A DNA stretch of 64,000 bases from Pseudomonadota bacterium (GTDB taxonomy: Bacteria; Pseudomonadota; Alphaproteobacteria; Rhizobiales; Xanthobacteraceae), in assembly GCA_963204905.1 (NCBI GenBank), contig CAUJJN010000192.1, positions 1-64,000 of the forward strand, given 5' to 3'. How positions within the stretch are numbered: the stretch's first letter is position 1; every line of letters starts with the position of its first letter. Made by a program: the position numbers and the translations under genes. Positions 5,372 to 41,330 of the stretch are shown here, in pieces. The notes beneath the pieces were generated by a model. That model was not told where the DNA came from and searched no databases. It saw nothing but the letters and a program-made list of their open reading frames with translations.

Positions 5372-6391
5372 ATGCGCGTTCTTGTCACCGGAACTGCCGG
5401 GTTCATAGGCTTTCACACGGCGAAGCGACTGTTGGAGCGTGGCGATTCAGTTGTCGGAATCGATGTCGTCAACGACTACTACGATCCCGCCTTGAAAGAG
5501 GCGCGCCTAAAGGTCCTGGCAAATGTCGCTGCGCAGTCGCGCGGCAGCTATCAGTTTATTCGTGCCGACCTCGCGGACCGTCGTACGCTCGATTCATGTT
5601 TCGCGTTCCACACGTTTGATCGGGTGATCCATCTCGCGGCTCAAGCCGGCGTGCGCTACAGCCTGGAAAATCCGCGTGCATATGTCGACAGCAATATCGT
5701 TGCCTTCACGCATCTGCTGGAGGCCTGCCGAGAGGCGGCTACTCCGCACTTGGTTTATGCCAGCACCAGCAGCGTCTACGGCGGGAATACACGGATGCCG
5801 TTCAGCGAGCATCATGGCGCGGATCACCCGCTGCAATTCTACGCTGCCACCAAGCGCGCCAACGAGTTGATGGCGCACAGTTACAGCCATCTGTTTGAAC
5901 TCCCGACGACGGGATTGCGGTTCTTCACTGTCTATGGCCCTTGGGGGCGGCCCGACATGGCGCTGTTCCTGTTTACGCGCAACATCATCGCCGGGCAGCC
6001 GATAAAATTGTTCAACAATGGCGCACATATGCGCGACTTCACCTACATCGATGATATCGTCGACGGCGTGCTTCTCGCCAGTGACGATATCGCGTGTCCG
6101 GATCCGCAGTGGAATAGCGATGATCCTGATCCGGCGACGAGCAATGCACCGTTCCGGATATTCAACATTGGGAACAACGCGCCGGTGTCGCTGGCTGATT
6201 ATGTCGAGGCAATTGAAATCGCCGTCGGCAAGAAGGCCATCCGGGAGTTGCTGCCGATGCAACCGGGAGACGTGCCCAATACGTTCGCGGATATCAGCCT
6301 GATTGCGTCGCGGGTGGGTTATCAACCGCGGGTCCCGGTGGCGGAAGGCGTCACGCGTTTTGTGCAGTGGTATCGCGACTATTTCGGCTGA
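5372..6391 (+). CDS. NAD-dependent epimerase, UDP-glucuronate 4-epimerase-like
   Basis: [41 protein letters not shown], YxxxK catalytic region, [11 protein letters not shown]. Confidence 0.85.
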
Positions 6392-6417
6392 CGTGCCATT
6401 CTTGTCGGGCGGCGGTC

Positions 6418-7734
6418 TCAGTGCGGCGGCCCCGGCCGGCCGATGCTCTCGTAAGTGAATCCGGCCGCTTCGACATCCTCGCGCCGATAGATATTGCGGA
6501 GGTCGACGATGATCGGTTGGCGCATGTCGCTGTGCAGCCGCTTGAGGTCGAGGGCGCGAAATTGCACCCACTCGGTGACGATCACCAGTGCATCGGTATC
6601 CTTGGCGCAGGCGTAGGCATCCTCGCAGTATTCGATATCAGGTAGTTCGCGCTGCGCCTGTGACATGCCGGCCGGATCGAAGGCGCGAACGCGTGCGCCC
6701 ATATCGAGCAGGCCGGTCACCAGGGGAATCGATGGTGCTTCCCGCATGTCGTCGGTGTCCGGCTTGAAGGTGAGACCAAGCACCGCAATCGTCTTGCCGC
6801 GCAACTGCCCCCCGAGCGTTGCGGCAACCTTGCGCGCCATCGCCCGCTTGCGGTTTTCGTTCACCGCGAGAACGGCATCGACGATGCGGAGCGGTACGTC
6901 GTGATCGAGTGCGATCTTCAGCAGCGCGCGGGTATCCTTTGGAAAGCATGATCCGCCGAATCCAGGGCCTGCATGCAGGAATTTGGTGCCGATCCTGTTG
7001 TCGAGGCCGATCCCGCGCGCCACTTCCTGAATATTGACGCCAACTTTTTCGGCAAGGTCGGCCATCTCGTTGATGAAAGTGATCTTGGTAGCCAGGAAAG
7101 CGTTCGCGGCGTATTTGATCATCTCGGCGGTACGTCGCGCTGTGAACATGATAGGCGCCTGATTGAGCGACAGCGGCCGATAGATGTCCCCCAGCACCTT
7201 GCGGGCCCGCTCGTCATCGGTTCCGACCACGATACGGTCAGGAAATTTGAAGTCCCGGATTGCAGCGCCTTCGCGCAGAAATTCCGGGTTTGACGCCACC
7301 ACGACATCGGCCTGCGGATTTGTTTCGTGGATCAGGCGCTCGACTTCGTCACCCGTGCCGACCGGAACGGTCGATTTGGTGACAACGACAGTGAACCCCC
7401 TGATGGCCGCCGCGATCTCCCGCGCGGCGGTGTAGACATAGGCCAGGTCGGCGTGACCGTCGCCACGTCGCGATGGCGTGCCTACCGCGATGAATACGGC
7501 GTCGGCTTCGCCGACGGCCTCGGTGAGGGTTGTGGTGAAGTCAAGGCGGCCGGCGCGGACGTTGGTCGCGACGAGATCATCAAGGCCGGGTTCGAAGATC
7601 GGAATCTCGCCGCGGGCGAGGGCGGCAATTTTCTCAGCATCCCTATCGACACAAACAACCTGATTGCCGAAATCCGCAAAGCAGGCACCGGAGACGAGAC
7701 CGACGTAGCCGGTCCCGATCATCGCGATTTTCAT
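6418..7734 (-). CDS. ugd: UDP-glucose 6-dehydrogenase
   Basis: MKIAMIGTGYVGLVSGACFADFGNQVVCVD, AANAFLATKITFINE, GPGFGGSCFPKDT, LGLTFKPDTDDMREAPS. Confidence 0.95.
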   Translation of the reverse strand: MKIAMIGTGYVGLVSGACFADFGNQVVCVDRDAEKIAALARGEIPIFEPGLDDLVATNVRAGRLDFTTTLTEAVGEADAVFIAVGTPSRRGDGHADLAYVYTAAREIAAAIRGFTVVVTKSTVPVGTGDEVERLIHETNPQADVVVASNPEFLREGAAIRDFKFPDRIVVGTDDERARKVLGDIYRPLSLNQAPIMFTARRTAEMIKYAANAFLATKITFINEMADLAEKVGVNIQEVARGIGLDNRIGTKFLHAGPGFGGSCFPKDTRALLKIALDHDVPLRIVDAVLAVNENRKRAMARKVAATLGGQLRGKTIAVLGLTFKPDTDDMREAPSIPLVTGLLDMGARVRAFDPAGMSQAQRELPDIEYCEDAYACAKDTDALVIVTEWVQFRALDLKRLHSDMRQPIIVDLRNIYRREDVEAAGFTYESIGRPGPPH

Positions 7735-7740
7735 GAGACG

Positions 7741-8988
7741 TTATCCTTTGGCGGAGTTTGCAAAGGTCGCGGGTGCTGGTGTCGCGAGCACCATGCCGCC
7801 CGCCACGCCAACGCCGAGGACATACATCCATCCGGCATGGAAGTCGAACAAATGGGAATTGAAGGCCGACGTTAGCATGTTCTGTGTCACGACGAGCAAA
7901 CCGATCCAATGCGCGAGGCTCGTGCCACGGAATAGCAGAAGATGGCTCAGCCACATCGCATAGAGAATGACGACGCCGACTATCCCCCACTGGACAGCGG
8001 CGTAGAGGGTCTGGTTGTGCGGGTTGGCGATGACTTCCGCCGCTGCACCGCTCTGGTTGGCGGAAGCTTTGGTGAACAGCAGCTTGACTGACCCGGTACC
8101 GTGGCCGATCACCGGCGCTTCACGGAAGAATTGCAGCGACTTGCGCCAGAACTCGAGCCGCAGTCCGACCGAAGTGGCTTCATTGGCTGTCTCGTAAGCT
8201 TGATATTGCGAGAAGAAGGTGGCCGTCCTTTCTCGCAGGCTGGGCGACGTGAACCAGACCGCTGCGATGAGGAGAATAACCGCCCCAAGCACGGCCGTCA
8301 TGCCACGCCGGCTAAGATAGAGCAGTGCGAAGGCACCCAACATGATCGGCATCGTCACGATCGCCGTTCGCGAAACCACGACGAAGGCCATATTGGCGAA
8401 AAAGCCTGCCGCGATGGTCGCCAATATAACTACTTTTTGCCATTGCCGCTGGCGAGCGGCCTGCGCGATCACATAAAATACACCGACCGTGCAGAGCGCG
8501 AATTCCTGGCTTTGATCGATGTAGTTCTTGACCGGTACGCCATAGTAGGCGTCCGGCTTCAACGCCAGCCGGGGCTCGATCGCCACGATCCAGGACAAGA
8601 CCATCAGAACGGTACTTGAGACGAAGAAGGCGGCGAATACCCAGAAGCCTCGTGACGAACGCCGGAAATGGTATATCAACAGGGGAATGGCAAGAAGTTT
8701 AGCCAACGGTCCGATGCCATAAAGTCGTGCATCCCAAGGCGCGGAGGACCATAAAGTGCCGATCAAGGCGAGTAGGAAAAAGCCGACCGGCAAAAAACAG
8801 ATGGGACGCTTCAAGAATTGCAGGAACTCATCGAAGTTGATGATCGGCAGTAGGGACAGCAGCCACAGACCAACGAAGATGGCGGGGAGGGAGGTCGACC
8901 ACGGGAGCGACGCCGCAATCAAGACCACCAAAAGGTCGGCTGGATAGAGCGAAGTCGTGACGCGGGGAAGCCAGGATCGAGCTGCCAT
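7741..8988 (-). CDS. O-antigen ligase/polymerase family membrane protein (WaaL/Wzy-like)
   Basis: Multiple TM segments and RLEFWRKSLQFFREAPVIGHGTGS...NPHNQTLYAAVQWGIVG (Wzy_C-type motif); 6 nt upstream of ugd on the same strand. Confidence 0.8.
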   Translation of the reverse strand: MAARSWLPRVTTSLYPADLLVVLIAASLPWSTSLPAIFVGLWLLSLLPIINFDEFLQFLKRPICFLPVGFFLLALIGTLWSSAPWDARLYGIGPLAKLLAIPLLIYHFRRSSRGFWVFAAFFVSSTVLMVLSWIVAIEPRLALKPDAYYGVPVKNYIDQSQEFALCTVGVFYVIAQAARQRQWQKVVILATIAAGFFANMAFVVVSRTAIVTMPIMLGAFALLYLSRRGMTAVLGAVILLIAAVWFTSPSLRERTATFFSQYQAYETANEATSVGLRLEFWRKSLQFFREAPVIGHGTGSVKLLFTKASANQSGAAAEVIANPHNQTLYAAVQWGIVGVVILYAMWLSHLLLFRGTSLAHWIGLLVVTQNMLTSAFNSHLFDFHAGWMYVLGVGVAGGMVLATPAPATFANSAKG

Positions 8989-9535
8989 TGTCTTATGATG
9001 CCATCACGTCTCGGTTGACTGCAGAGTAACTCAAAAGCGCAACCACATCCGTGAAGCGTGAATCAATTCTTGAAAAATGACTTTTAACGATATTGTCGGT
9101 CGGTCACACTGGAAAAGTCACCGAAAATGTCGAACGGGTACCGACACTATTACAAATTAACGATGATCTAGAAAGATATAGGGGCTGTTTCCCCAGACCA
9201 CTCTCAATGGTTATAAAACAATAAATCATCAAATTAAAGGGGCGGGCCGGCAACACGGAACCGTCGGATTCGAACCCGCCGGCAGTTCCACGAACGGCTC
9301 TTTGATATTGGGTTGGTATACTACGGAAAAAGTGCCATGGACGGACGATGCCGGCTCGGAGCGATTTGCCGCCGATCGGACGGGGTCTCGGGCGCTTGTG
9401 CCTGGTACTACAAGCATTTGGCACGGTTCATGTGGCGAGGGCGAATCCCGACCGGTTTTGGCCTAAACCGGTGACCTGGCTATGGCGAATCTGATCTGAC
9501 CCAGTTGCGCGAACATCGCGCTCCACAGGATTTCA

Positions 9536-11464
9536 ATGACCTTGAAGCTTCCCCGTATCGATCGCCTCTCCAGTTTGACGCATCGGAATTTGTTGATCGC
9601 CATCCACGACGTTCTGGCGACGGTGGCGGCTGTTCTGGGCAGCTTTCTGTTGCGGTTTGATCCGAATTCCCTGCAAGACCGTTTGCCGCTGCTGCTGATT
9701 ATCCTTCCGCTGTTTGCGGTTCTCAGCGTCATCGTGTGTTTCGCCTTCCATTTGACGACCACGAAATGGCGATTCATTTCGTTGCCGGACGTGATCAACA
9801 TCGTCCGTGCGGCGACTGTACTGGCCGTGGCATTGTTGGCGCTGGACTACGTTCTTGTTGCGCCTGATGCCTACGGTGGTTTTTTCTTCGGAAAAGTCAC
9901 CATCATTCTTTATTGGTTTCTACAGGTCTTTTTCTTCGTTGGTCTGCGGTTCGCCTATCGCTATTTCCGGTTCACGAGAAGCCGGAACAAGGCACGTGCC
10001 GGCGATGTTGCGCCGACCTTGCTGATCGGTCTGGCGGCTGACGCCGAGATTTTCTTGCGTAGTTTCGAGAGCGGCGCGACGAAGCAGTTGTGGCCGGTGG
10101 GCATCCTGTCGCCGTCGCCCGCCGACCGTGGGCAACTCATCCGGGGAACTCCGATTCTCGGTTCTCCCGATGATCTGAAGGACGTCGTGAGCGACTTCGC
10201 CAGACGGGATCGGCCAATCAAGCGGCTGGTGATGGCGCCATCGGCGTTCGAGCAGGGGGCCAATCCGGAGTCGGTCATCGTCCAGGCCCGCAATATCGGC
10301 CTGATCGTCAATCAGCTCCCCTCGCTTGAGACAGGGGAAGTGCCGCGCTTGAAACCGGTGGCTGTGGAGGATCTGCTGCTGCGCCCCACAGTGAAAATTG
10401 ATCATGCGCGACTGGACGCCTTCGTTCGTGGCAAAGCGGTCATGGTCACGGGCGGCGGCGGGTCGATTGGTTCCGAAATTTGCGATCGTGTGGTCAGTTT
10501 CGGCGCAGCGCGGCTGTTGATCGTCGAGAACTCGGAGCCAGCGCTCTATTCCATTATGGAAGCCCTGAAAGTGGAAGCCGCCACAGGTGCCATCGAAGGC
10601 CGCATCGCGGACATTCGCGACTTCGATCGCATCCAGCAACTCATGAGCGAATTCCGACCTGATATCGTGTTCCACGCCGCGGCGCTCAAGCATGTTCCGA
10701 TCCTGGAGCGAGACTGGAGCGAAGGTGTGAAAACCAACGTGTTCGGCTCCATCAATGTCGCCGATGCTGCCATCGCCGTTGGCGTGGAAGCGATGGTGAT
10801 GATTTCCACAGACAAGGCGATCGAACCGGTATCGATGCTGGGTCTCACCAAGCGGTTCGCCGAAATGTATTGCCAGGCGCGCGACCGCGAACTCATGGAT
10901 CAGGCGACCAGCCGCTCTCCGACGCGCCTGATCTCTGTGCGGTTCGGCAATGTCCTGGCCTCGAAGGGATCTGTCGTTCCCAAATTCAAGGCTCAGATCG
11001 AAGCGGGCGGACCGTTGACGGTGACGCATCCTGATATGCTGCGCTACTTCATGACGATCCGTGAGGCTTGCAACCTGGTTGTCACGGCTGCTGCGCACGC
11101 GGTGACGGCGGATAGTTCGGGGGTGTCGGTTTACGTCCTCAATATGGGGCAGCCGATCAAAATCGTCGACCTCGCGAGGCGGATGGTCGAGTTGTCAGGG
11201 CTGCAGCTCGGCTACGACATCGATATCGTTTTCACCGGCGTTCGACCTGGCGAACGTATGAACGAGATTCTGTTCGGGAGCGACGAATCAACGAAGGATA
11301 TCGGAGTTGCCGGTGTTCTGGCGGCGGAGCCGAACCAGATGCCTATCGACACACTGAGGTCGCGGATCGCGGAGCTAAAGCGAGCGATCGAGAATAACGA
11401 CCGTGCCGCCATCAAGGCGGCGCTAGCTGATGCTGTGCCGCCGCTTGGTCGAAATCTCGCGTGA
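9536..11464 (+). CDS. Membrane-bound nucleoside-diphosphate-sugar epimerase/dehydratase (CapD/WbpM/PglF family)
   Basis: N-terminal TM domain, second Rossmann MVTGGGGSIGSEICDRV, HAAALKHVPILE, ISTDKAIEPVSMLGLTKR, FGNVLASKGSV. Confidence 0.9.
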   Translation: MTLKLPRIDRLSSLTHRNLLIAIHDVLATVAAVLGSFLLRFDPNSLQDRLPLLLIILPLFAVLSVIVCFAFHLTTTKWRFISLPDVINIVRAATVLAVALLALDYVLVAPDAYGGFFFGKVTIILYWFLQVFFFVGLRFAYRYFRFTRSRNKARAGDVAPTLLIGLAADAEIFLRSFESGATKQLWPVGILSPSPADRGQLIRGTPILGSPDDLKDVVSDFARRDRPIKRLVMAPSAFEQGANPESVIVQARNIGLIVNQLPSLETGEVPRLKPVAVEDLLLRPTVKIDHARLDAFVRGKAVMVTGGGGSIGSEICDRVVSFGAARLLIVENSEPALYSIMEALKVEAATGAIEGRIADIRDFDRIQQLMSEFRPDIVFHAAALKHVPILERDWSEGVKTNVFGSINVADAAIAVGVEAMVMISTDKAIEPVSMLGLTKRFAEMYCQARDRELMDQATSRSPTRLISVRFGNVLASKGSVVPKFKAQIEAGGPLTVTHPDMLRYFMTIREACNLVVTAAAHAVTADSSGVSVYVLNMGQPIKIVDLARRMVELSGLQLGYDIDIVFTGVRPGERMNEILFGSDESTKDIGVAGVLAAEPNQMPIDTLRSRIAELKRAIENNDRAAIKAALADAVPPLGRNLA

Positions 11465-12490
11465 CCGACTAAAGTAAACAAGGACAGCCGCGACCGCAAT
11501 CACACCACAACCCAGCAGCGTGAATTGTGCTGACGGTGCGGTCCACAAAAGCGTTGCTGCCGCGAGGGCAGCCAGGACCACGTTGAGAACGAAGACGGTT
11601 GCGATGACCTGCATCACCGTCAATCCGTTGTCGGTTGCGCGCTGATAGAAATGAGTTCGGTGGGCGACCCAGATCCGTTCGCGATTGAATGCCCGCCTCA
11701 AGATTGTCACCGTTGCGTCCGCCAGATAGTAAAGCGGCAACAGAACGGCTGTCGCGACATGGCCCTGGGCGGCCAGTTCCAGGAGGCCCCATCCCAGCAG
11801 CAGCCCAATCGGCAGGCTTCCGACGTCGCCAAGAAAGAGCTTTGCCACCGGCTTGTTGAACGGCGCAAATCCGATCATTGCGCCGCCCAAGGCGCTCATG
11901 GCCATTGCTGTTGCGGACGGCAGATGGCCCGTCATGCCGAACATCGCCAATGCTCCGGTGATCGGGACCGTCTCGGCGACGGTCATCCAGTCGAGCCCGT
12001 CCATGAAGTTGACGAGATTGACGAACCAGATTCCTGCAATCAGAATCAGCCCTCTCTCAAGCCAGAACGGACATTGCGGGACAATCTGGACGGTCGCCGG
12101 AAGGGATACGATGATGATCCCGACCGCCAGCGCCTGGGAGATGAGGCGAGGTAGAACAGGAATCGGCCGGTAGTCATCGAACGCGCCGATCACCGCGATG
12201 AAAAGTGTCGCGGTGAAGACCGATATGACAGGCAGCCCGATTTCAAGCCCCGCCGTTGTCATTGCGAGAGCCGCGATGATCAGCGCAGCAACGACCACGG
12301 CGGCGCCGCCACCCTGCGGGGTCGGAATCGTATGAGATGATCGACTGTTCGGTTTCGCCAGCGCGTAGCGGCGTAGCATGGGTCGAATTGCGGCAGTCAG
12401 GCAAAACGACAAGATCGCTGAACAGGCCAACGCCAGAAATATGATTGAGGGAGGCGCCACGAGTGTCTCTGACATGCCGATTGCGTACAT
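11423..12490 (-). CDS. Undecaprenyl-phosphate sugar-1-phosphate transferase (WecA/WbpL/MraY superfamily)
   Basis: Multi-TM; NSRSSHTIPTPQGGG, FDDYRPIPVLPRL, NFMDGLDWMTVAE, FLGDVGSLPIGLLLG, HRTHFYQRA motifs; likely start ATG 12490 or 12475. Confidence 0.9.
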   Translation of the reverse strand: MYAIGMSETLVAPPSIIFLALACSAILSFCLTAAIRPMLRRYALAKPNSRSSHTIPTPQGGGAAVVVAALIIAALAMTTAGLEIGLPVISVFTATLFIAVIGAFDDYRPIPVLPRLISQALAVGIIIVSLPATVQIVPQCPFWLERGLILIAGIWFVNLVNFMDGLDWMTVAETVPITGALAMFGMTGHLPSATAMAMSALGGAMIGFAPFNKPVAKLFLGDVGSLPIGLLLGWGLLELAAQGHVATAVLLPLYYLADATVTILRRAFNRERIWVAHRTHFYQRATDNGLTVMQVIATVFVLNVVLAALAAATLLWTAPSAQFTLLGCGVIAVAAVLVYFSRSREISTKRRHSIS

Positions 12491-23331: not shown

Positions 23332-24156
23332 ATGACGGTAATTGAAAACAAGAGCGGTAATAGTTGGGGCTACCTTCTGGTGGCGGGCTGGCGAGATATC
23401 GCAAGTGGGTTGGCCTATCATCAAGCTTGGGTCCATCTTGCTTGGCATGAAATTCGCCGTCAGTACCAGCGCTCGACCCTCGGACCGTTCTGGATCACCC
23501 TCAATATCGGCATGATGATCGCGACCATCGGCTGGTTCTATTCCGAAATATTCGGAATGAAAATGGACGACTATCTACCGTTTCTCACGTTGGGTTTCGT
23601 CGTCTTTAACTTTATGTCGCTCTCGATCACCGAAGCGTCGGCGATCTTCGCCAACGAGGCGACTTCGATCAAGCAATCTCTGCTGCCGCTGAGCTTCTAC
23701 ATTTATAAATTGATATACCGGCAGATCATTGTGTTTGTACACAACATCACAATCTATGTTCTGGTCTGCGTTATCTATCCGCCGTCTGTTAGCGCCGTCA
23801 TGCTGCTTGCTATCCCGGGGTTTATCCTCATGGTGCTGACAGCATTTTTTGTTGGTCTTATCATTGGCCCGATTTCCGCACGCTTCCGGGATATTCCCCC
23901 GATCATCGCGAGTCTTGTTCAAGTATTTTTCTTCATCACGCCCATTTTCTGGACCGTCGGAAATGTGCCGAAGCGCGGGGTTTTTGTGAATATCAATCCG
24001 TTTTATCACTACCTTGAAGTCGTACGTCAGCCGCTGCTTGGCAATGCACCCACGACACTCAACTGGATTGTGGTCGTGGGACTGACGATTGGCTTTGGGC
24101 TCGTGTCATTTATATTTTTCAGCCGGTACCGGTCCAAGATAACCTACTGGGTATAA
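23332..24156 (+). CDS. wzm: Polysaccharide ABC exporter permease (Wzm/KpsM family)
   Basis: WHEIRRQYQRSTLGPFWITLNIGMMIATIGWFYSEIFG and SARFRDIPPIIASLVQVFFFITPIFW motifs; adjacent to Wzt-like ATPase. Confidence 0.88.
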   Translation: MTVIENKSGNSWGYLLVAGWRDIASGLAYHQAWVHLAWHEIRRQYQRSTLGPFWITLNIGMMIATIGWFYSEIFGMKMDDYLPFLTLGFVVFNFMSLSITEASAIFANEATSIKQSLLPLSFYIYKLIYRQIIVFVHNITIYVLVCVIYPPSVSAVMLLAIPGFILMVLTAFFVGLIIGPISARFRDIPPIIASLVQVFFFITPIFWTVGNVPKRGVFVNINPFYHYLEVVRQPLLGNAPTTLNWIVVVGLTIGFGLVSFIFFSRYRSKITYWV

Positions 24157-24160
24157 AGTT

Positions 24161-24919
24161 ATGGTCGGTATCACCATCGAGAACGTTGTCGTCGATATTC
24201 CTATCTATGGGACAGGAAGTCGTTCGCTTCGCAATAGCATCCTGTCAGCGGCGACGGGGGGCGCGATCAAGGTTTCTGATGGACACAAGCTGTCGGTGCG
24301 GGCGCTGGACGGCCTCACGCTTTCGCTGAAGCAAGGCGATCGGCTTGGGCTGGTTGGTCACAATGGCGCCGGTAAGTCGACGCTTCTTCGCGTTATGGCG
24401 GGCATCTATGAGCCGATGGGTGGACACGTTCGGATCGAAGGCCGGATTGCGCCGATCTTCGACCTGGGTTTTGGCATGGAGCCCCACAGTAACGGTTGGG
24501 ACAACATGCTTTTACGAGGGATATCGCTCGGGTTGTCATTGAACCAGATTCGCGAGCGGATGGATGAAATCGCCGCAGTGTCCGAGCTTGGTGAATTTCT
24601 TGATATGCCGCTGAGGACCTACTCGTCCGGCATGGCGGCTCGTCTGGCATTCGCTATCTCGACCTCGATCACAGCTGATATCTTGCTGATCGACGAGGGA
24701 ATTGGGGCGGGCGATGCCGCGTTTCTCGAAAAGGCGCGACAGCGTACTGACAAGCTGATCCAGAATGCAGGCATCCTTGTGTTCGCATCGCATTCGGATG
24801 CTTTGGTGCAGCAGTGGTGCAAGCAAGCGCTTTGGCTGGAGCACGGCAAACCCCGTATGCTGGGTGAGGTCGGAGAGGTTCTTGATGCTTATCGGACCGC
24901 CATTGCTTCGGGAGCCTAG
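24161..24919 (+). CDS. wzt: Polysaccharide ABC exporter ATP-binding protein (Wzt/KpsT family)
   Basis: GLVGHNGAGKSTLLRVMAGIYEP, PLRTYSSGMAARLAFAISTSITADILLIDEGIGAGDAAF. Confidence 0.9.
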   Translation: MVGITIENVVVDIPIYGTGSRSLRNSILSAATGGAIKVSDGHKLSVRALDGLTLSLKQGDRLGLVGHNGAGKSTLLRVMAGIYEPMGGHVRIEGRIAPIFDLGFGMEPHSNGWDNMLLRGISLGLSLNQIRERMDEIAAVSELGEFLDMPLRTYSSGMAARLAFAISTSITADILLIDEGIGAGDAAFLEKARQRTDKLIQNAGILVFASHSDALVQQWCKQALWLEHGKPRMLGEVGEVLDAYRTAIASGA

Positions 24920-28482: not shown

Positions 28483-29786
28483 AGTCCGAAATTCAACAGC
28501 TAAGTTTGGCGATACGCAAAAATATGCTGATGGGTTTCATTCTTCTATTCGCCCTTGTGGCTAGTGTTGGCGGATGGGCGGCGAGCACAGAGATTTCCTC
28601 CGCGGTCCTCGGTGCCGGTACCGTTGTTGTGGACACTCACGCCAAGAAGGTCCAGCATCCCTTGGGGGGCGTGGTCAGTGAGTTGCTTGTTCATGAGGGC
28701 CAGTTTGTCACGGCGGGAGACGTCGTCGTCAGGCTGGATGCGACCCAGGCTCGCGGCAACCTTGCGATCGTGTCGAACAATCTCGATGAATTAAGAGTTC
28801 GCCGGGCTCGCCTGGAGGCGGAGCGGGACGAAGCACATGCGATTTCGTTTCCCGTTGACATCCTGTCGCGTAGCTCCGAGCCAAATCTGGACCGAACGAT
28901 CGCGGGCGAAACGCGCTTCTTTCAGTCACGCAGATCCGCGCTTGATGGACGGAAGGGTCAGCTCAATCAGCGCATCGCGCAACTCCGGGAGGAGATGAAA
29001 GGCACACAAGTTCAGGCTGACGCCAAAGCGGAGGAGGTCGCTATCGTATCGAACCAACTGGAGGGGGTTCGCGAGCTTTGGGAGAAGAAGCTCATCCCAC
29101 TCTACCGGGTGGCTGCCCTCGAGCGAGATGTTGCTCGACTGGAGGGGGAGCGAGGCGCCCTTCTGGCCCGCCAGGCTGAAACGAATCTCCGTATCACAGA
29201 AACCAACCTGCAGATTATCCAAGTTGATCAGGAGTTCCGCACAGAGGTGGTTAAAGACCTGGCGGAGATGCGGGGAAAGCTGACTGAACTTGAGGAGCGG
29301 GAATTGGTTGCGCGGGATCAGATGAAGCGCATCAATGTGATCGCTCCCCAAAGCGGGGTCGTTCATCAACTCGCGGTATACACCGTGGGAGGTGTCGTTT
29401 CTGCCGGCGAAGTCCTCATGCAGATTGTGCCAACCGCAGATCAGCTTTTTGTTGAAGCAAAGATCGCACCGCATGATGTGGACCAAATATCGATCGGACA
29501 GCAGGTGACCGTTCGTCTATCTGCCTTCAATCTCCGAACAACCCCCGAGCTTACCGGTTCTGTTTTAAGAATGTCACCTGACTATGTTGAAGACGGGCCT
29601 TCCAAGGCGCGCTACTATGTCGTGCGAGTGGAGCTCCGGAACTCCGAACTCGCAAAGCTGGGTAAGCTAAAGCTGTTACCGGGGATGCCGGCTGAAGCTT
29701 TTTTCCAAGCTGGCAGCCGCACCATGATCTCCTATCTGCTCAAGCCGATTGCGGATCAAACCGGAAAAGCATTCAGGGACGATTGA
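28479..29786 (+). CDS. Type I secretion membrane fusion protein (HlyD/PrtE/AprE family)
   Basis: GAGTVVVDTHAKKVQHPLGGVVSELLVHEGQFVTAGDVVVRLD; coiled-coil middle; INVIAPQSGVVHQLAVYTVGGVVSAGEVLMQIVP; ATGA overlap with the ABC gene. Confidence 0.92.
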   Translation: MKSEIQQLSLAIRKNMLMGFILLFALVASVGGWAASTEISSAVLGAGTVVVDTHAKKVQHPLGGVVSELLVHEGQFVTAGDVVVRLDATQARGNLAIVSNNLDELRVRRARLEAERDEAHAISFPVDILSRSSEPNLDRTIAGETRFFQSRRSALDGRKGQLNQRIAQLREEMKGTQVQADAKAEEVAIVSNQLEGVRELWEKKLIPLYRVAALERDVARLEGERGALLARQAETNLRITETNLQIIQVDQEFRTEVVKDLAEMRGKLTELEERELVARDQMKRINVIAPQSGVVHQLAVYTVGGVVSAGEVLMQIVPTADQLFVEAKIAPHDVDQISIGQQVTVRLSAFNLRTTPELTGSVLRMSPDYVEDGPSKARYYVVRVELRNSELAKLGKLKLLPGMPAEAFFQAGSRTMISYLLKPIADQTGKAFRDD

Positions 29787-30086: not shown

Positions 30087-32348
30087 ATGCGTGGATGCCC
30101 GAGCAATGAGGCAGGTATTGTGACCGACAGAGTGCTACTCGTTTATCCTGAGCCATACTTCAGGTCAGGGGGGGGGATCGCAACCTACCTGAAGCACGCT
30201 GTCCATGCTCATCTTGCCGCCGGGCGGAAGGTTCATTTGTTAACGTGGACCACCGGAGAGAACAGATGGTCGGAGGCCAGGCCTGACCAAACCCGTTACG
30301 ACCCCCTGCGGGTGAGCGACGTCACCGAGGTGCATTTCGGCGAGGACGAAATAAGCCGCGTCAACCCGGACGGCGTTCGAGCAAAGAATGTGTCGGACTT
30401 GCTTTTTCCCCACATTGCAAGAATTGAAGCCGCGTTTGGCCCGGATATCATAGAAGGAAGCGACTATCTCGTACCCCTTCATTCCTATCTGGAGCGCCGA
30501 CGGTGCGGTTTGCATGCCAGCAAGGCTGTGACCTGCACGTTCAATCATGGCCTTCACATGGATATCTGGCCGGCATCAGCCATTTTCCCATCAGATACGA
30601 CGCTGCGGGAGTTCGCCCTTGAGTCTCAGGTCTTGCAATGGTCGGATTTCGTCCTTGCACCATCATGGGCTGCCTATAACAGGCTAAAGCCTCTTGTCGG
30701 AAGAGAGGAGCGGTTACGTCTTGTCAGAGAGCCATTCGAAGGGCAGTGGCGCATTGCGGACCAATTTCCGAACGATAGGTTTGTCTATTTCGGCAGGGTA
30801 TCGTTTGCAAAAGGGGTCGATACTTTCGCTGGACTATTATCGTGTGCCGAAGAGCAGTGGCCGATTTCCAGCGTTACCTTCATCGGTCGACGAGAGTGGA
30901 TGCCGTTTCGTCGTTCGGATGCCAAAGACTATCTTCTTTCCCGCTTGGGAGAAGGGATTCGTAACAGAGTCGAATTTCGCGAGCAGATGGACAGGGCGGA
31001 ATTGCTCAACCAACTTGGCAGGTATGGTTACTTCGGCAATTTTTCGCGGACTGAAACATTCTCGTACACGACCGTAGAGGCTCTCGCCGCAGGCGTGGTG
31101 CCGCTTATGCTCTCGGACACGGCCATGTCGGAGTTTGTTCCCGACGATTTCAGAAGGCAAGCTATTTTCAAAGAAGCTCCGTTCCGCGCACCTAACGTTT
31201 TGGCGGTGCTTGACGGTTGGAAAAGGCATTATTCCGAGTGGATGACTGCGACGCAAGCTTATGTGGCTGAATTGCTATCCTATGCAAACTTCAATGAAGC
31301 CTACGCCGCGATAAAGCCGCAAGTAGTGAGATCGGTAACGATACCGTCGCGACGATATGACGGCGGTGATGTCACCGTTCTTATAGCGACTCACAATGAT
31401 GCAAAATTGGCAGAGGGCGCCATCGACTCCATTCGGTCTCAAACACAACAAGTGAAGGAGATTCTCGTCCTCGATGATGGAACCTCGTCTGAGGCGGATA
31501 TCAAGTTATTGGAACGCCTGGCTGACGAAAAAATTATCAGGCTGATGCGTGTCCCGAACATGGGCCTCGTCTCGGCACGCAATGTTCTCGTTGAAAATGC
31601 GGGGACAGATCTCGTGGTATTTCTAGATGCGGATGATCGGCTCGCGGACCGTTACGTCGAGAAAACGCTTCTTGCTCTCAATTCCGCGCCAGTTTTCTTC
31701 GCAGCGGCCATTACACGACGAAAGAATTTTGGTCTCAACGAAAACGAGATGGGGCAGTGTTTACTTGGGACTGATGTTCATTGGGTTCTTAACGACCTCA
31801 GGATGACCGCGCTTATCAAGAGAGAAGTACTGGCCGACCTGCAGTTCGATCCTGCGATTAGGAATGGCGAAGCCGATGACTGGTGGTGGTGGCTACGATT
31901 TACGTTGAATGATCATCATGCGGTTTTTGTGCCTGAGCCGCTGTTTCTGTATCGCACCGAACAGGGGACGATGTCATGGCCATGGTCGGAAGGGCAGGCT
32001 GTGCTGACGGTTGAGTTGTTGAAAAGAGCGATCACGGAAGCGTCCCGGCTTGGGGTGGATATCTCCAATGCTCACAAACTGAGCATCATGGGTATGTATC
32101 GCAATGCCTTGGAGCTTGATATGATGTCGGTCGGATCGATGCGGGGCCGCCTCGCGGCGAAGAAATTCAACAAGAATGCCGCAACTGCCGACTACGTGGT
32201 ATCAAAGCTGGTCCTGATGTTTGGTGAAGAAACGGGACTGAAATTGGCGCGATCAGCGCGGGCCCTTGCGTATTCCACGCCAGGGGTTCGTCGTGCCAGC
32301 AAAACGGCGCTATCGGTGGTTGGAAAGATATTGGGCCGTCGCGTTTGA
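30087..32348 (+). CDS. Bifunctional glycosyltransferase: N-terminal GT4-like plus C-terminal GT2
   Basis: N-terminal VLLVYPEPYFRSGGGIATYLKHAV, TETFSYTTVEALAAGVVPLM; C-terminal DVTVLIATHNDAKLAEGAIDSIRSQTQQVKEILVLDDGTS, LVVFLDADDRL; likely start GTG at 30120. Confidence 0.85.
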   Translation: MRGCPSNEAGIVTDRVLLVYPEPYFRSGGGIATYLKHAVHAHLAAGRKVHLLTWTTGENRWSEARPDQTRYDPLRVSDVTEVHFGEDEISRVNPDGVRAKNVSDLLFPHIARIEAAFGPDIIEGSDYLVPLHSYLERRRCGLHASKAVTCTFNHGLHMDIWPASAIFPSDTTLREFALESQVLQWSDFVLAPSWAAYNRLKPLVGREERLRLVREPFEGQWRIADQFPNDRFVYFGRVSFAKGVDTFAGLLSCAEEQWPISSVTFIGRREWMPFRRSDAKDYLLSRLGEGIRNRVEFREQMDRAELLNQLGRYGYFGNFSRTETFSYTTVEALAAGVVPLMLSDTAMSEFVPDDFRRQAIFKEAPFRAPNVLAVLDGWKRHYSEWMTATQAYVAELLSYANFNEAYAAIKPQVVRSVTIPSRRYDGGDVTVLIATHNDAKLAEGAIDSIRSQTQQVKEILVLDDGTSSEADIKLLERLADEKIIRLMRVPNMGLVSARNVLVENAGTDLVVFLDADDRLADRYVEKTLLALNSAPVFFAAAITRRKNFGLNENEMGQCLLGTDVHWVLNDLRMTALIKREVLADLQFDPAIRNGEADDWWWWLRFTLNDHHAVFVPEPLFLYRTEQGTMSWPWSEGQAVLTVELLKRAITEASRLGVDISNAHKLSIMGMYRNALELDMMSVGSMRGRLAAKKFNKNAATADYVVSKLVLMFGEETGLKLARSARALAYSTPGVRRASKTALSVVGKILGRRV

Positions 32349-32568: not shown

Positions 32569-33006
32569 TTGCTCTTGTTCCCTCGCTCAGTGATCAATGT
32601 TTTTCGACAATCGAAAACCTCTGCGAAACTCGTCAGTTTTGCGCTGGTAGGTGTTGTCAACACGGCGATCGATTTTGGCATCTTCATTCTTTGCTACAAG
32701 CTTGTCGGATTGCCATTGATTGCGTCTAATGTGTTGGCATGGCTGGTTGCCGTGTCGTGTTCGTATGTTGTCAATACGCTTACGACATTCCGAGCCGAAA
32801 GCGGGCGTGTGCTTCAGCGACGACATTACATCAATTTTGTTTTGTCGGGCGTGCTCGGTGTTGTCGCGTCAACCACGGTGCTGGTGGTGGCGTCGAGTTT
32901 CGTTCAAGTTTTGTTCGCCAAGCTCTTGTCCATTCTCGTCGGCTTTCTGGTGAACTTCACGATGAGCAATTTTGTCGTGTTCAGGCCGAGAAAATCCGAA
33001 CTCTGA
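32569..33006 (+). CDS. GtrA family membrane protein
   Basis: KLVSFALVGVVNTAIDFGIFILCYKL, SYVVNTLTTFRAE, FLVNFTMSNFVVFRPR; four TM segments. Confidence 0.85.
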   Translation: MLLFPRSVINVFRQSKTSAKLVSFALVGVVNTAIDFGIFILCYKLVGLPLIASNVLAWLVAVSCSYVVNTLTTFRAESGRVLQRRHYINFVLSGVLGVVASTTVLVVASSFVQVLFAKLLSILVGFLVNFTMSNFVVFRPRKSEL

Positions 33007-33039: not shown

Positions 33040-34185
33040 TCAGACCCCGAGGACACGCTCTGTTTCCGCAGCCGCGCAGATCAGATGGTAGAATGATGAC
33101 GCAGGTATGAAGTCGACGATTGAGCGCCCCTCAGGATCGAATTGATCATACCAGCCACCAGCGACCGGATGTGTCAGGTATTGGCTCGTAAGGCGTTCGA
33201 GTGCTGCTAATGCTTCCTCGCGCGCTCCGGATGTGTTGGACTCAACCTCCGTAAGCCAAGCTTTGACAATCTCGGTTTGCGGCCAGAGTCTGCGCGTAGG
33301 CTGCGTGATCCTGCCGGCGATATCTCCTTCGTCGAGAAGACATCCGGATTGTATTTCGCGATAGCGTAACGCCGTGGACATGAGAGCCGTTCGGTGACGG
33401 CTCGTGGGACAGCCAGTGATTCGCTCGAACTCCTTGAGCAGCCAAACCCATTCAGCTTGATGCCCCGGCTCTACGCGGATCGGAAGTATCTTCGACCAAT
33501 CCTCCTCGAAGTATTCACCAACGACCTGCGCCGATGCATCGTAGAAATTCGACATAAACAGCGCAAAAATGCCACCCGCGCGCTGTTGAAACATGACGTC
33601 GCCCGTCGCGTCGAACAAGGCGATCATGGCCTCGAACAGGTGCATATGTGGGTTCTGTCGGCGCGGCAATGATGCGGGGGCGCCCTCCGTGTAGCCGCCG
33701 TGGGGCGACCGCAAGGTCTCGTCAATAAATGATATCGTGGTATCGATCTCGTTGCGAACCTGGGAGTCCTCGGTCAACCGATAAACGGTCGCGAGGGCGA
33801 GCAGGACGAATGCATGGTCATATAGATCACGGAGGGGGTTCATAAGGCTCCCGTCGGGAGCCAGAAGGTGACCGAAGCCGGGCTTGCCGTCGACCTTGCG
33901 AGCCTTGCGGAGCATGTAGTCGAGTCCTTTAAGCGCCAATTCCTTTCCGGGTGGAAACCACCCCAAATTGGCCGCCATCGCAAAGCAATAAATCTGTCGC
34001 GCTTGAACGCGAACGCGCCGAGGAGTCTCGATTTCCGGTCGTCCGTTCCGGTCGAGACGCTCGATGAAGCCCCCCGAGTGCGTATCCCATCCCAGGGTTG
34101 CCCAGATGGGGAGCGCTTGCTCGATAAGAAATGCTCTCAGGCTTGGGACTGATTTCGCGTTGCGCCGAGTTGTTGAATCGGTCAT
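33040..34185 (-). CDS. AGE-family (N-acylglucosamine 2-epimerase / mannose isomerase-like) protein
   Basis: WDTHSGGFIERLDRNGRP, RQIYCFAMAANLGW, DLYDHAFVLLALATVYRLT, EPGHQAEWVWLLKEF. Confidence 0.85.
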   Translation of the reverse strand: MTDSTTRRNAKSVPSLRAFLIEQALPIWATLGWDTHSGGFIERLDRNGRPEIETPRRVRVQARQIYCFAMAANLGWFPPGKELALKGLDYMLRKARKVDGKPGFGHLLAPDGSLMNPLRDLYDHAFVLLALATVYRLTEDSQVRNEIDTTISFIDETLRSPHGGYTEGAPASLPRRQNPHMHLFEAMIALFDATGDVMFQQRAGGIFALFMSNFYDASAQVVGEYFEEDWSKILPIRVEPGHQAEWVWLLKEFERITGCPTSRHRTALMSTALRYREIQSGCLLDEGDIAGRITQPTRRLWPQTEIVKAWLTEVESNTSGAREEALAALERLTSQYLTHPVAGGWYDQFDPEGRSIVDFIPASSFYHLICAAAETERVLGV

Positions 34186-34860: not shown

Positions 34861-35673
34861 ATGGTTCGGCGCTATATTGCTCTGGTGTTCCTCCTTCTTG
34901 GCGGTGCTTTCGCCATTCGAGCGTTTGTCACCACGGAAGTGGGCAAGGATTCCGCGCTACGATCGTTCCTCATCCCTTTCGCCCGGGTCTTTCTGGATAC
35001 CTTTAATTCGAGTACGACCGCCGTCGCACTATCGCTTGCCATGGTTCTCGCTGGTGTGCTCCTGCTGGTTTACTTCTGGGTGGCTCGGTTCGCTCCGGCT
35101 CGTCGCGATATGCGAGCGGTTGCAGTCGCATTGCAGCGCATTCCGGCGCCGATCGATCGCGAACGTTTGCAACAGATCGATGCTCTTATGGAGCGCTACA
35201 ATATTGTGACGCGAAGCTGGAAGTTGTTTCGCGCGACACTCACGACCCGTCCGGACGGCCGGATCTTGGCGGAGGTCCCACCAGATCGCTACTTCGATAT
35301 GAGCGTCCTTGAACGCGTTGGCTTGCGCTTGCGGGTATTCCTGGGGCTGCCGAATGACTTCGTCGGCCTCGGGCTGGTATTTACATTCATGGGCCTTGTC
35401 GCGGGTCTCTACTTTGCAAGTCGGAGTATGATGTCCGCGGATCTCGCGGTGGCGCGGGATGGTTTGATCCTTCTGCTTCATGCTGCGACGTTTAAGTTCA
35501 TGACATCAATCGCCGGCATAGGCGTGTCGATCATGTTGTCGTGGGGGCAGCGCATTTTGCTCGGTAATATCGAGGCGGAACTAAGCGAGATTCGTTTTCT
35601 GCTCGAGGAACGCTTGCCTTACGCTGACAATGCGCTCCATGAAGCAGCCAAGCCGCTGCTGGAGCGGGTTTAG
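34861..35673 (+). CDS. MotA/TolQ/ExbB/ZorA-like proton-channel protein
   Basis: About four hydrophobic segments with a cytoplasmic loop between TM2 and TM3; TM4 motif AATFKFMTSIAGIGVSIMLSWGQRILL typical of the MotA/TolQ/ExbB fold; paired with a MotB-like gene. Confidence 0.7.
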   Translation: MVRRYIALVFLLLGGAFAIRAFVTTEVGKDSALRSFLIPFARVFLDTFNSSTTAVALSLAMVLAGVLLLVYFWVARFAPARRDMRAVAVALQRIPAPIDRERLQQIDALMERYNIVTRSWKLFRATLTTRPDGRILAEVPPDRYFDMSVLERVGLRLRVFLGLPNDFVGLGLVFTFMGLVAGLYFASRSMMSADLAVARDGLILLLHAATFKFMTSIAGIGVSIMLSWGQRILLGNIEAELSEIRFLLEERLPYADNALHEAAKPLLERV

Positions 35674-35675
35674 CC

Positions 35676-36431
35676 ATGTCGGCTAACGTATTGTCCGATT
35701 CGGAAAGCCAGCACAGTTACTTCATCCCAATGGTGGATATGCTGGCAGGCGTGGTTTTTATCCTGGTCATTTTGCTGGCGGCCACCACTTTGGTGTCCCG
35801 CAGTGATTTTGCCGACGCCGCGGCCGCAAATGCGGAAATCGCTCGCATCAACGAGGCCCTGAAGGTGGCGCGTGCGCAAGAACATCAGGTTCTGGAGCCG
35901 AGGCGGCGTGCCCGCGCCGCACAGCGGAGGTTGCTTGATCAGATCGGCGTGCAGCTCAAGGCAGCAAAGATCGATAGTGCCATCGACTACGAGGCCGGGC
36001 GTCTTTCTATATCCGCAGACCGGCTGTTCTCGCCGGATAAAGCGGTTCTTGAGGATGCAGGGCGACATGTTGCCAGTATATTGTCCTCCGCCTTCCATTC
36101 GGAATTACCTTGTCTTTCGAAGCCGCCCGCCGCTGCGGACAATTGTGCCGCGTATGACAGCGTGATGTTGGAAGAGGCTATCGTGGCCTATCGGTCCGCG
36201 ACGCTGGACTCTGCTGCTGCATTGCCGTCGGCGCGAGCGCTGACGTTGCTCTCCCAGATTGTCGCCGCCACGCCGAGCCTTGCGGGTCTTGCTGCGGCTG
36301 ATTCCGGCAAGCTGTTGACCCATGCCGGATTCGTACCGTCTGGGGCCAAGACCGGGAAGGATCAGGAAGCTGGAGCATCCGATGATGCAATTGTCTTGCA
36401 ATTCCGGATGCAGGTTCCGCCTCCGAAATAG
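35676..36431 (+). CDS. MotB/ExbD/ZorB-like protein: single TM with conserved Asp plus OmpA-like periplasmic region
   Basis: YFIPMVDMLAGVVFILVILLAATTLV (Asp at start of TM), coiled region, then LSISADRLFSPDKAVLEDAGRHVASIL...ALPSARALTLLSQIV...SGKLLTHAGFVPSGA resembling an OmpA/MotB C-domain. Confidence 0.7.
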   Translation: MSANVLSDSESQHSYFIPMVDMLAGVVFILVILLAATTLVSRSDFADAAAANAEIARINEALKVARAQEHQVLEPRRRARAAQRRLLDQIGVQLKAAKIDSAIDYEAGRLSISADRLFSPDKAVLEDAGRHVASILSSAFHSELPCLSKPPAAADNCAAYDSVMLEEAIVAYRSATLDSAAALPSARALTLLSQIVAATPSLAGLAAADSGKLLTHAGFVPSGAKTGKDQEAGASDDAIVLQFRMQVPPPK

Positions 36432-36500: not shown

Positions 36501-37847
36501 ATGTCCGACCGAATTGTTCCTCTGATTATGTGCGGCGGGGCTGGGACGAGGCTATGGCCGTTGTCTCGAGAATCTTTTCCGAAGCAGTTCATCGATATCT
36601 TCGGCGGCCACTCGACTTTCCAGCAGACCATCAAGCGCGTTGCCGACCGTCGTCTGTTCGATCGACCGATCGTGATCACCGGCGCAGCCTACAGGTCGAT
36701 CGTCATTGAGCAGCTTTCCGCCTGCGGTGCGCAAGCGGATATTCTTTTGGAGTCGGCGCGCCGAGACTCTGGGCCAGCTATTGTCGCGGGCGCAATTTTT
36801 GCCCAGCGGCTTGCCCCCGATTCGATCGTCCTCGCGCTGGCCGCCGATCATCTCGTCAGGGATTTCGCCAGTTTTGTCGCCGCGTGCGAAGCTGCGATCG
36901 AGACAGCTCGCAACGGTCACATCGTAACATTCGGTGTCGAACCTGATCGAGCTGCGACTGAGTACGGCTACATCTCGCCGGGCGCCGTCATTGACGGACA
37001 GGTTCGTGGTGTCATGCAATTTGTCGAGAAGCCAGATCTGGCGACCGCGGTGCGATATGTCAAAGAGGGGTTCCTTTGGAATAGCGGCAATTTCATGTTT
37101 CGAGCCGATGTCCTGGTCGACGAATATCTTCAGGTCGATGCTGACAGCGTGGCTGCTATTTCGCGGGCTGTGGCGGGCGCTACCCTTGAGGGTCCCGTAG
37201 CGACCATCGACAAAGCTGACTTCGAAAACGCCAAGCCCATTTCCATAGACTACGCGGTGATGGAACGAACAAAACGGGCTGCCGTCATTCCCGTTTCGTT
37301 TGGTTGGTCTGATGTCGGCTCGTGGCATACCGTCTGGGATATCGCCGGGAAAGACACTGACGGCAATGCCACGCAGGGGCATGTCGTTCTCGAAGGCGCC
37401 AGAAACTGTTTTGTGTCCACGGAAGGGATGCTGATCGCCCTGGAGGGTGTTCATGACCTGGCGGTGGTTTCGACCGCCGATGCTGTTCTGGTTTCACGGC
37501 AGGCGGATGCCAGCGGGATGAAGCGTCTGGTCGAGAAACTGAAGACCGCCTCGCCGGAAGCGATGCGGGGACACTTGGCAGGGCCGGGGGCGACGTCATC
37601 GGCCTCCGGACAAAATTACCCGGCTCGTCGAATGGTCATAGCGCCGGCCGGCAGCTACGACACAGGGGTGTCATCCCGTGCGATTCACTGGATTGTGGCG
37701 GCTGGCGAGGGCGTGGCAATGATTGATGGCGCGCGGAAGCTGGTTGGCCGCAACGATGCGGTTTATCTCCCGGCCGGCACTGCGAGCCGGTTGGTGAACG
37801 CGGGGGAGGCCGATCTCGTGCTAATTGAAGTACCGATGGAGTTTTGA
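36501..37847 (+). CDS. manC: Mannose-1-phosphate guanylyltransferase / mannose-6-phosphate isomerase
   Basis: IVPLIMCGGAGTRLWPLSRESFPKQF, FVEKPD, WNSGNFMFRADVL, SIDYAVMERT, VSFGWSDVGSW; cupin-like C-terminus. Confidence 0.93.
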   Translation: MSDRIVPLIMCGGAGTRLWPLSRESFPKQFIDIFGGHSTFQQTIKRVADRRLFDRPIVITGAAYRSIVIEQLSACGAQADILLESARRDSGPAIVAGAIFAQRLAPDSIVLALAADHLVRDFASFVAACEAAIETARNGHIVTFGVEPDRAATEYGYISPGAVIDGQVRGVMQFVEKPDLATAVRYVKEGFLWNSGNFMFRADVLVDEYLQVDADSVAAISRAVAGATLEGPVATIDKADFENAKPISIDYAVMERTKRAAVIPVSFGWSDVGSWHTVWDIAGKDTDGNATQGHVVLEGARNCFVSTEGMLIALEGVHDLAVVSTADAVLVSRQADASGMKRLVEKLKTASPEAMRGHLAGPGATSSASGQNYPARRMVIAPAGSYDTGVSSRAIHWIVAAGEGVAMIDGARKLVGRNDAVYLPAGTASRLVNAGEADLVLIEVPMEF

Positions 37848-40361: not shown

Positions 40362-41330
40362 ATGACTATCGTATCTCTTGTCACCGGAGCCGGAGGATTT
40401 CTTGGTCGTCGCTTATTTGACCTTGGGCGGCAGCGAGGATGGCATATGCGTGGGACCGTTCGACATGGTCATGCGGCGATTGACGACGCTCTGAATATTT
40501 CCGAAATCGAACTGGGCGCGCCCGAGACGGATTGGCGCCGAGTGCTTCGCGGCGTCGACGTCGTTATTCATGCGGCGGCACGCACGCACATCCTTCGAGA
40601 GATGGCGACTGATCCCGCAGCCGCGTATCGGATCACGAACGTCGAGGCTACCGAAAAGATTGCGCAGATAGCAGCGGAAGAAGGAGTGAAACGCTTCGTC
40701 TTCGTCAGTTCGGTCCATGTGCATGGAGGCATTTCGCAGGGAGGGCCGCTGACGGAGGAATCTTCTCAACAGCCCACAACATTCTATGCCAAATCCAAGA
40801 GAGACGCAGAGGTGGCTCTTGAGGATGTCGCCCGAAAGACCGGCCTTGAAACAGTTATCGTGCGGCCACCACTGGTTTTTGGGCCAAACGTGAAAGCCAA
40901 TTTTCTTCGCTTGATCGAGCAAGTCGACAAAGGGGGCATCGTCCCTTTTGCGTTGGTCAGAAATCGTCGCAGTTTGATTTACATCGATAATCTCGCCGAT
41001 CTGCTTCTCACCGCAGCGGTCCATCCCGCCGCGGTGGGCCGTTCGTTTGTCGCAGCCGATGATACGACGCTTTCGACGCCAGAGCTCTGGCGGGAAATAG
41101 CTGTCCGGCTTGGTCGTCCGTCTCGCATGTTGCCGCTTCCCGTATCATGGCTTCGTGCGGCCGCACGGGTTGCCGGGAAGGCGGATCTTTACGAGAAGCT
41201 GTGTGAATCGCTGGAGGTTGATGCGTCGCGAGCGCGCTCCGTGCTCGATTGGAAACCGCCGGTTGCGACCCGTGAAGCCTTGGACGCGACGATTGCATGG
41301 TATCGATCCGATCAACGAAGGCTGACCTGA
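40362..41330 (+). CDS. NAD-dependent epimerase/reductase (WbpV/WreQ-like nucleotide-sugar 4-reductase or epimerase)
   Basis: VTGAGGFLGRRLFDLGRQRGW, VIHAAARTHIL, FVFVSSVHVHG, YAKSKRDAE; C-terminal SRARSVLDWKPPVATREALDATIAWY. Confidence 0.8.
   Translation: MTIVSLVTGAGGFLGRRLFDLGRQRGWHMRGTVRHGHAAIDDALNISEIELGAPETDWRRVLRGVDVVIHAAARTHILREMATDPAAAYRITNVEATEKIAQIAAEEGVKRFVFVSSVHVHGGISQGGPLTEESSQQPTTFYAKSKRDAEVALEDVARKTGLETVIVRPPLVFGPNVKANFLRLIEQVDKGGIVPFALVRNRRSLIYIDNLADLLLTAAVHPAAVGRSFVAADDTTLSTPELWREIAVRLGRPSRMLPLPVSWLRAAARVAGKADLYEKLCESLEVDASRARSVLDWKPPVATREALDATIAWYRSDQRRLT

What the first reader, a model, noticed from the sequence alone, without database searches (positions are those of the whole stretch)
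34861..36431. MotAB/ExbBD/ZorAB-like ion-driven motor pair embedded in a polysaccharide gene cluster
Seen: two same-strand genes separated by 2 nt. The first has four hydrophobic segments and a MotA/TolQ-type TM4 (FKFMTSIAGIGVSIMLSW). The second has one TM beginning with Asp (PMVDMLAGVVFILVILLA), a helical linker and a degenerate OmpA/MotB-like C-domain. Known: such pairs use the ion gradient to do mechanical work (MotAB, ExbBD, TolQR, Zorya ZorAB, Myxococcus AglRQS). Here there is no flagellar, Tol, Ton or Zorya C/D/E neighbour. The ZorA-like protein also ends about 30 aa after TM4, so it lacks the long ZorA tail. Inference: an uncharacterised motor, possibly energising export, anchoring or organisation of the surface polysaccharide.
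Basis: partly seen in the sequence, partly recalled or inferred. Interest (0 to 1): 0.78.

Follow-up and report, generated by a model that had tools for sequence, protein, structure and literature searches.

The report
Tail-less Zorya-like motor beside O-antigen genes
A bacterial sugar-coat gene cluster contains an ion-driven rotary-motor gene pair descended from the Zorya phage-defence motor but missing the two parts Zorya needs for defence, and its four relatives found elsewhere also lie among sugar-coat genes, which suggests the motor now serves the cell surface instead.

Summary
Window 34861-35673 and 35676-36431 (+) encode a ZorA-like and a ZorB-like protein. They are not MotA, ExbB or TolQ: PADLOC ZorA1 5.9e-27 and ZorB1 1.5e-22, Pfam none, and the closest solved structures by sequence and by fold are ZorAB.

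The ion path is intact: TM Asp (D21), and T175 and S216, which align with T147 and S184 of the solved ZorA 8qyh. Both working ends of Zorya are missing. The A subunit has no cytoplasmic tail. The B subunit keeps an OmpA-like fold but has lost the peptidoglycan signature (GHTD Asp, N..LS Asn, first Arg of NRRIDLRF: 22/22 in tailed loci, 0/5 in tail-less ones). Published mutants show Zorya needs both features.

In about 1,860 genomes examined I found five such pairs (23-48% identical to the window's A subunit). All five lie among O-antigen or polysaccharide genes and none has ZorC nearby. Tailed ZorA neighbourhoods: 20/25 with ZorC, 0/25 with two or more polysaccharide genes (Fisher p = 7e-6).

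Most likely this is a rare ZorAB-derived motor retasked to the surface polysaccharide, working through its periplasmic domain. The homology, the losses and the linkage are shown; the function is inferred.

The parts
34861..35673 (+). A subunit: tail-less ZorA-like protein, 270 aa, four hydrophobic helices, ion-path residues T175 and S216
35676..36431 (+). B subunit: ZorB-like protein, 251 aa; TM Asp D21, long linker helix (48-96), OmpA-like C-domain that has lost the peptidoglycan-binding signature
36501..37847 (+). ManC-type mannose-1-phosphate guanylyltransferase / mannose-6-P isomerase, 69 nt downstream on the same strand (possible co-transcription)
   Evidence: PF00483 1.4e-39, PF01050 1.6e-7
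33040..34185 (-). GlcNAc-2-epimerase-family protein, divergent neighbour
   Evidence: PF07221 2e-75
30087..32348 (+). two-domain glycosyltransferase (GT4 + GT2)
32569..33006 (+). GtrA-family membrane protein
   Evidence: PF04138 2.6e-22
23332..24919 (+). Wzm/Wzt-type polysaccharide ABC exporter (ABC2 membrane protein + ATPase)
5372..12490 (.). nucleotide-sugar epimerase, UDP-sugar dehydrogenase, O-antigen ligase (Wzy_C), CapD/WbpM-like dehydratase, WecA-like transferase: far end of the same cluster
40362..41330 (+). NAD-dependent epimerase, near end of the cluster

Best explanation
The pair encodes an ion-driven A5B2-type inner-membrane motor of ZorAB descent that no longer belongs to a Zorya defence system and has been retasked to the surface polysaccharide (O-antigen or EPS) made by the surrounding genes. 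Ion flow past the B-subunit Asp (D21) and the A-subunit Thr/Ser ring (T175, S216) should turn A relative to B, as in MotAB/ZorAB. Shown here: ZorAB homology, conserved ion path, loss of the cytoplasmic tail, loss of the peptidoglycan signature residues, conserved linkage to polysaccharide loci, absence of ZorC. Inferred: with no tail there is no cytoplasmic output, and with no wall clamp the B dimer is not a fixed stator, so the work or conformational change is delivered in the periplasm by the OmpA-fold domain of B acting on a glycan or a polysaccharide assembly/export partner. That would resemble how ExbD/TolR/GldM-type subunits act on periplasmic partners and how Myxococcus AglRQS moves spore-coat glycan strands. 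The partner is unknown and no dedicated third gene is shared by all five loci.
For: Family: PADLOC ZorA1 5.9e-27 and ZorB1 1.5e-22; NCBIfam ZorA_1 1.9e-28 over its first ~200 of 619 positions only, below cut-off; no Pfam match for the A subunit and no significant one for B; only ZorA chains match the A profile in the PDB; best fold matches are ZorA (8qyh 3.5e-7) and ZorB (8qyd, 8vvn). Ion path: TM Asp in 27/27 B subunits; T175 and S216 equivalents in 28/28 A subunits, aligned with T147/S184 of 8qyh. Losses: no tail in five pairs against 195-527 residues after the core in the intact tailed ZorA; PG residues 22/22 vs 0/5 for the GHTD Asp, the Asn of N..LS and the first Arg of NRRIDLRF. Both features are experimentally required for Zorya defence (PMC11890865). 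Linkage: five of five tail-less loci in polysaccharide clusters, none with ZorC within the fetched neighbourhood or PF15611 in the genome; tailed controls are the reverse, Fisher p = 7e-6. Tree: four tail-less A subunits form one clade (100/99) that groups with tailed ZorA. Precedent for a motor moving a surface glycan: AglRQS-Nfs (PMC3858216).
Against: No function has been measured and no conserved partner was found. The five loci carry different sugar genes and different export routes; Wzm-type ABC genes or O-antigen-ligase genes lie on the same contig within about 30 kb in only some of them, and none that near in G1165. The family is rare and absent from 7 other genomes of the genus, so it is dispensable. 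Only five loci are known, four from one clade, so Fisher's independence is imperfect. The comparison set of tailed loci includes one decayed Zorya (L034) and one frame-split ZorA (L071). Single-chain models are of moderate confidence (pLDDT 71), and no 5:2 model could be run.
Confidence: 0.55

Rival explanations
1. It is still an anti-phage module: a minimal ZorAB-type sensor that responds to phage binding or injection at the O-antigen and depolarises or signals by ion leak, without ZorC/D/E.
For: ZorAB descent; O-antigen is a common phage receptor (general knowledge); accessory, patchy distribution.
Against: The tail and PG binding that Zorya requires are both missing (PMC11890865); no effector gene nearby and no PADLOC defence hit among neighbours apart from a shared ATPase-domain match in an ABC transporter; no EH_Signature (PF15611) gene in the five genomes; none of the five lies in an evident defence island.
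Confidence: 0.13
2. A non-motor use: the pair is an ion-gated sensor or regulator of polysaccharide synthesis, where B senses glycan or envelope state and A changes conformation or leak, without sustained rotation.
For: Neither of the known output or anchor ends is present; neighbours are synthesis genes.
Against: The complete ion path is conserved; the short cytoplasmic end of A leaves little to signal with; no regulator gene is shared among the loci.
Confidence: 0.17
3. Decayed Zorya remnants or passengers that happen to sit in variable polysaccharide islands.
For: Rare and accessory; O-antigen islands collect foreign genes (general knowledge); a genuinely decayed tail-less ZorA exists elsewhere (L034).
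Against: Intact adjacent or overlapping ORFs in divergent pairs with the ion path unchanged; third codon positions diverge most; the linkage survives although flanking genes and orientations differ; tailed ZorA loci are not in such islands (0/25 with two or more polysaccharide genes).
Confidence: 0.1

Closest known systems
Zorya ZorAB (types I-III)
   Same: A subunit homologous over the membrane core, B homologous over its length; same gene order; TM Asp and Thr/Ser ring conserved
   Different: No cytoplasmic tail, no peptidoglycan signature residues, no ZorC found, O-antigen or polysaccharide setting instead of ZorC/D neighbours
MotAB flagellar stator
   Same: MotA/TolQ-type membrane core, B with one TM Asp helix and an OmpA-like C-domain
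   Different: No MotA sequence match, does not group with the genome's own MotA-like protein, no peptidoglycan anchor residues
ExbBD / TolQR
   Same: Ion-driven A5B2 superfamily; probable action through the periplasmic part of B (inference)
   Different: Fold match only weak (E about 0.03 against 3.5e-7 for ZorA); B has an OmpA-like rather than an ExbD/TolR domain; no TonB/TolA partner seen nearby
Myxococcus AglRQS-Nfs
   Same: Precedent for an ion-driven motor of this superfamily moving a surface polysaccharide (PMC3858216)
   Different: AglRQS has one A-type and two B-type subunits plus dedicated Nfs/Glt proteins (general knowledge); none seen here

Membership tests
Zorya anti-phage system | ZorA/ZorB homologous pair in order | tested here: met
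Zorya anti-phage system | Long ZorA cytoplasmic tail (required for defence, PMC11890865) | tested here: not met
   Protein ends at residue 270 with 0 residues after the core profile; NCBIfam match covers only 4-203 of 619
Zorya anti-phage system | ZorB peptidoglycan-binding residues (required for defence, PMC11890865) | tested here: not met
   GHTD Asp, Asn of N..LS and first Arg of NRRIDLRF 22/22 in tailed loci, 0/5 here
Zorya anti-phage system | ZorC/ZorD, ZorE or ZorF/G effector genes adjacent | tested here: not met
   No ZorC by tblastn, no PF15611 in the genome, which is about 87% complete, no PADLOC Zorya hit among nine neighbouring proteins
Zorya anti-phage system | Phage protection | not testable with these tools
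   Needs an experiment
MotAB stator | Groups with MotA; MotA_ExbB Pfam domain | tested here: not met
   No Pfam hit for the A subunit; not among the PF01618 hits of its own genome; tree
MotAB stator | Peptidoglycan-anchored B subunit | tested here: not met
   Signature residues absent; binding itself was not measured
ExbBD/TolQR | ExbD/TolR-type periplasmic domain and ExbB/TolQ-type A subunit | tested here: not met
Ion-driven A5B2 motor superfamily | A with MotA/TolQ-type core, B with TM Asp facing a Thr/Ser ring | tested here: met
Ion-driven A5B2 motor superfamily | 5:2 stoichiometry | not testable with these tools
   No multimer prediction available

The most novel reading that the evidence does not exclude
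A previously undescribed class of ion-driven rotary motor dedicated to making, exporting or spatially arranging O-antigen/EPS: a ZorAB derivative that dropped both the cytoplasmic output rod and the cell-wall anchor and works only through its periplasmic domain on a glycan-assembly partner.
Probability: 0.3. Interest if true: 0.85.

Novelty: new variant of a known kind. Interest (0 to 1): 0.62.

Why it matters
Zorya work shows that the ZorA tail and ZorB wall binding are essential for defence. Here nature has removed both while keeping the ion-driven core and moved the pair into surface-polysaccharide loci. That makes it a natural experiment on what the bare motor can do, it warns against annotating such pairs as phage defence, and it offers a testable second case (after AglRQS-Nfs) of an ion motor working on a surface polysaccharide.

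Tried and rejected
An alignment of five mixed sequences was too diverse for the collection scan. No relatives were found in viral contigs or plasmids. A protein partner common to all five loci was sought by all-against-all comparison: besides the pair itself, only generic epimerases (5 loci) and glycosyltransferases and ABC ATPases (4 loci each) recur. An extra N-terminal helix was considered as a hallmark and dropped, because many tailed ZorA have it too. G107/L034 was first taken as another tail-less relative; it is a truncated copy of an ordinary ZorA (branch about 0.04 from full-length L105). G629/L070 was considered as an intermediate; it has a tail and intact wall-binding residues and is simply an orphan ZorAB. 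Promoter and terminator scans gave nothing beyond chance. The mads_3 hit of the neighbouring ABC transporter is a shared ATPase domain. The Nature 2024 Zorya paper was not found under the DOI I tried.

Full report
Observation. The two ORFs exist as described: 34861-35673 (270 aa) and 35676-36431 (251 aa), 2 nt apart, with four and one hydrophobic segments. About 42 rather than 30 residues follow the quoted TM4 segment.

Identity. The A subunit has no Pfam match and B has none of significance, but PADLOC gives ZorA1 5.9e-27 and ZorB1 1.5e-22, the latter over nearly the whole length. NCBIfam ZorA_1 matches at 1.9e-28 but at 99 bits against a cut-off of 190, because only the first ~200 of 619 positions are there. 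A profile of four tail-less A subunits finds only ZorA chains in the PDB, and so does one of the three closest. AlphaFold2 models (pLDDT about 71, three sequences each) match ZorA (8qyh, 3.5e-7) and ZorB (8qyd 7.1e-6, 8vvn 2.1e-5) best; MotB periplasmic domains come next for B, and ExbB/TolQ only at about 0.03-0.1 for A. The genome's own MotA/ExbB/TolQ-type proteins are other genes.

Ion path. T175 and S216 align with T147 and S184 of 8qyh, counted from the printed alignment. They are kept in all 28 A subunits compared. The B-subunit TM Asp (D21) is kept in 27 of 27. PMC11890865 describes this Asp against a Ser/Thr ring as the ion path of ZorAB and MotAB, and shows D24 of ZorB is needed for defence.

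What is missing. All five tail-less A subunits (270-302 aa) stop 0-27 residues after the core profile, against 195-527 in the intact tailed ZorA. In B, the OmpA-family signature is invariant in 22 B subunits from tailed loci and lost in all five partners: GHTD Asp 22/22 vs 0/5, Asn of N..LS 22/22 vs 0/5, first Arg of NRRIDLRF 22/22 vs 0/5, His of GHTD 22/22 vs 1/5, Thr 22/22 vs 1/5; the Arg of LS..R is kept in 3 of 5. PMC11890865 reports that H186, L199, R203, R254 and R259 of ZorB I are needed for peptidoglycan binding and defence, and that ZorA with residues 237-696 deleted is inactive. I equate these residues with the motif columns by pattern, not by the paper's own alignment.

Relatives and linkage. 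Searches covered about 1,860 genomes with some overlap between draws and one scan of the GTDB representatives by short peptides. They gave four other tail-less pairs: Mesorhizobium loti LU (L031/L037 = G265), a Rhizobiaceae MAG (L036 = G1180), G1165 (L101) and the more divergent G184 (L033). Their neighbours by Pfam: RmlA/B/C/D, Wzm/Wzt with Wzt_C and an acyltransferase (L031); CapD/WbpM-like, GT2, UndP-sugar transferase, O-antigen ligase, GT25 (L036); GT2 genes, RmlD-like and Polysacc_synt_2 (L101); NTP transferase, WecA-like, ManC and an epimerase (L033). In a leave-one-locus-out tblastn test, tail-less loci had 2-6 polysaccharide genes each (5/5) and no ZorC. Tailed loci had none or one (2/25 with one, 0/25 with two or more), and 20/25 had ZorC. 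Fisher p = 7e-6 for two or more polysaccharide genes, 1.5e-4 for one or more, 1.8e-3 for ZorC. The 25 comparison loci include a few on short contigs and two partial ones (L034, L035), and the five tail-less loci are related, so these p-values are guides only. PF15611 (EH_Signature, ZorC) is absent from the five genomes and present in three Zorya controls.

Phylogeny. With 28 and 44 ZorA-type sequences plus the genome's own MotA/ExbB/TolQ-type proteins, the window, L036, L031 and L101 form one clade (100/99). L033 and a tailed Zorya (L069) lie near it (98/96 in the smaller tree; unresolved in the larger one). The likely history is one loss of the tail within ZorA, but a second loss for L033, or rooting uncertainty, is not excluded. 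The outgroup branches are long and their support is weak.

Distribution. None of the 7 other genomes of the genus and none of the other 189 sampled from the family carries the tail-less form. It is a rare accessory element travelling with variable polysaccharide loci.

Mechanism. Shown: ion-driven core, no tail, no wall-binding signature, polysaccharide setting. Inferred: A rotates relative to B on ion flow; with neither cytoplasmic rod nor wall clamp, output must be periplasmic, through B. AglRQS-Nfs moving spore-coat glycan (PMC3858216) shows that such motors can work on a surface polysaccharide. The partner is unknown. Rivals: an ion-gated sensor, residual phage defence, or decay.

Literature. 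No held paper that I found describes a tail-less ZorAB or a link of ZorAB to polysaccharide loci. PMC12505986 notes many generic ion transporters of unknown function and calls Zorya more distantly related. Preprints and most subscription papers could not be searched.

Noticed in passing
window 38442-39980 (+), with 26716-28482 and 28428-29786: Matrixin-type metalloprotease with FG-GAP repeats inside the O-antigen cluster, alongside a type I secretion ABC protein and HlyD-family adaptor; probably the secreted substrate.
   Followed up: partly
L034 923-1810 (G107): A 295-aa ZorA cut off before its tail, nearly identical to full-length L105, next to a DNA-methylase gene that looks like type III restriction-modification, with no ZorB or ZorC found: a decayed Zorya.
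   Followed up: partly
L070 7896-10162 (G629): Orphan tailed ZorAB with intact peptidoglycan signature but no ZorC nearby and no PF15611 in the genome.
   Followed up: partly
L071 9534-11920 (G743): ZorA motor core and tail lie in two overlapping reading frames in a one-contig genome: a frameshift mutation, sequencing error or programmed frameshift.
   Followed up: no
e.g. G864:C262 and G892:C426: ZorA-like matches in very long open frames (up to 4177 aa stop to stop) in several other families of the same phylum: possibly giant cytoplasmic tails.
   Followed up: no
L033 11047-11880 (-): A 277-aa protein with no Pfam or PADLOC match directly upstream of the divergent tail-less pair; possible third component in that lineage.
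   Followed up: partly
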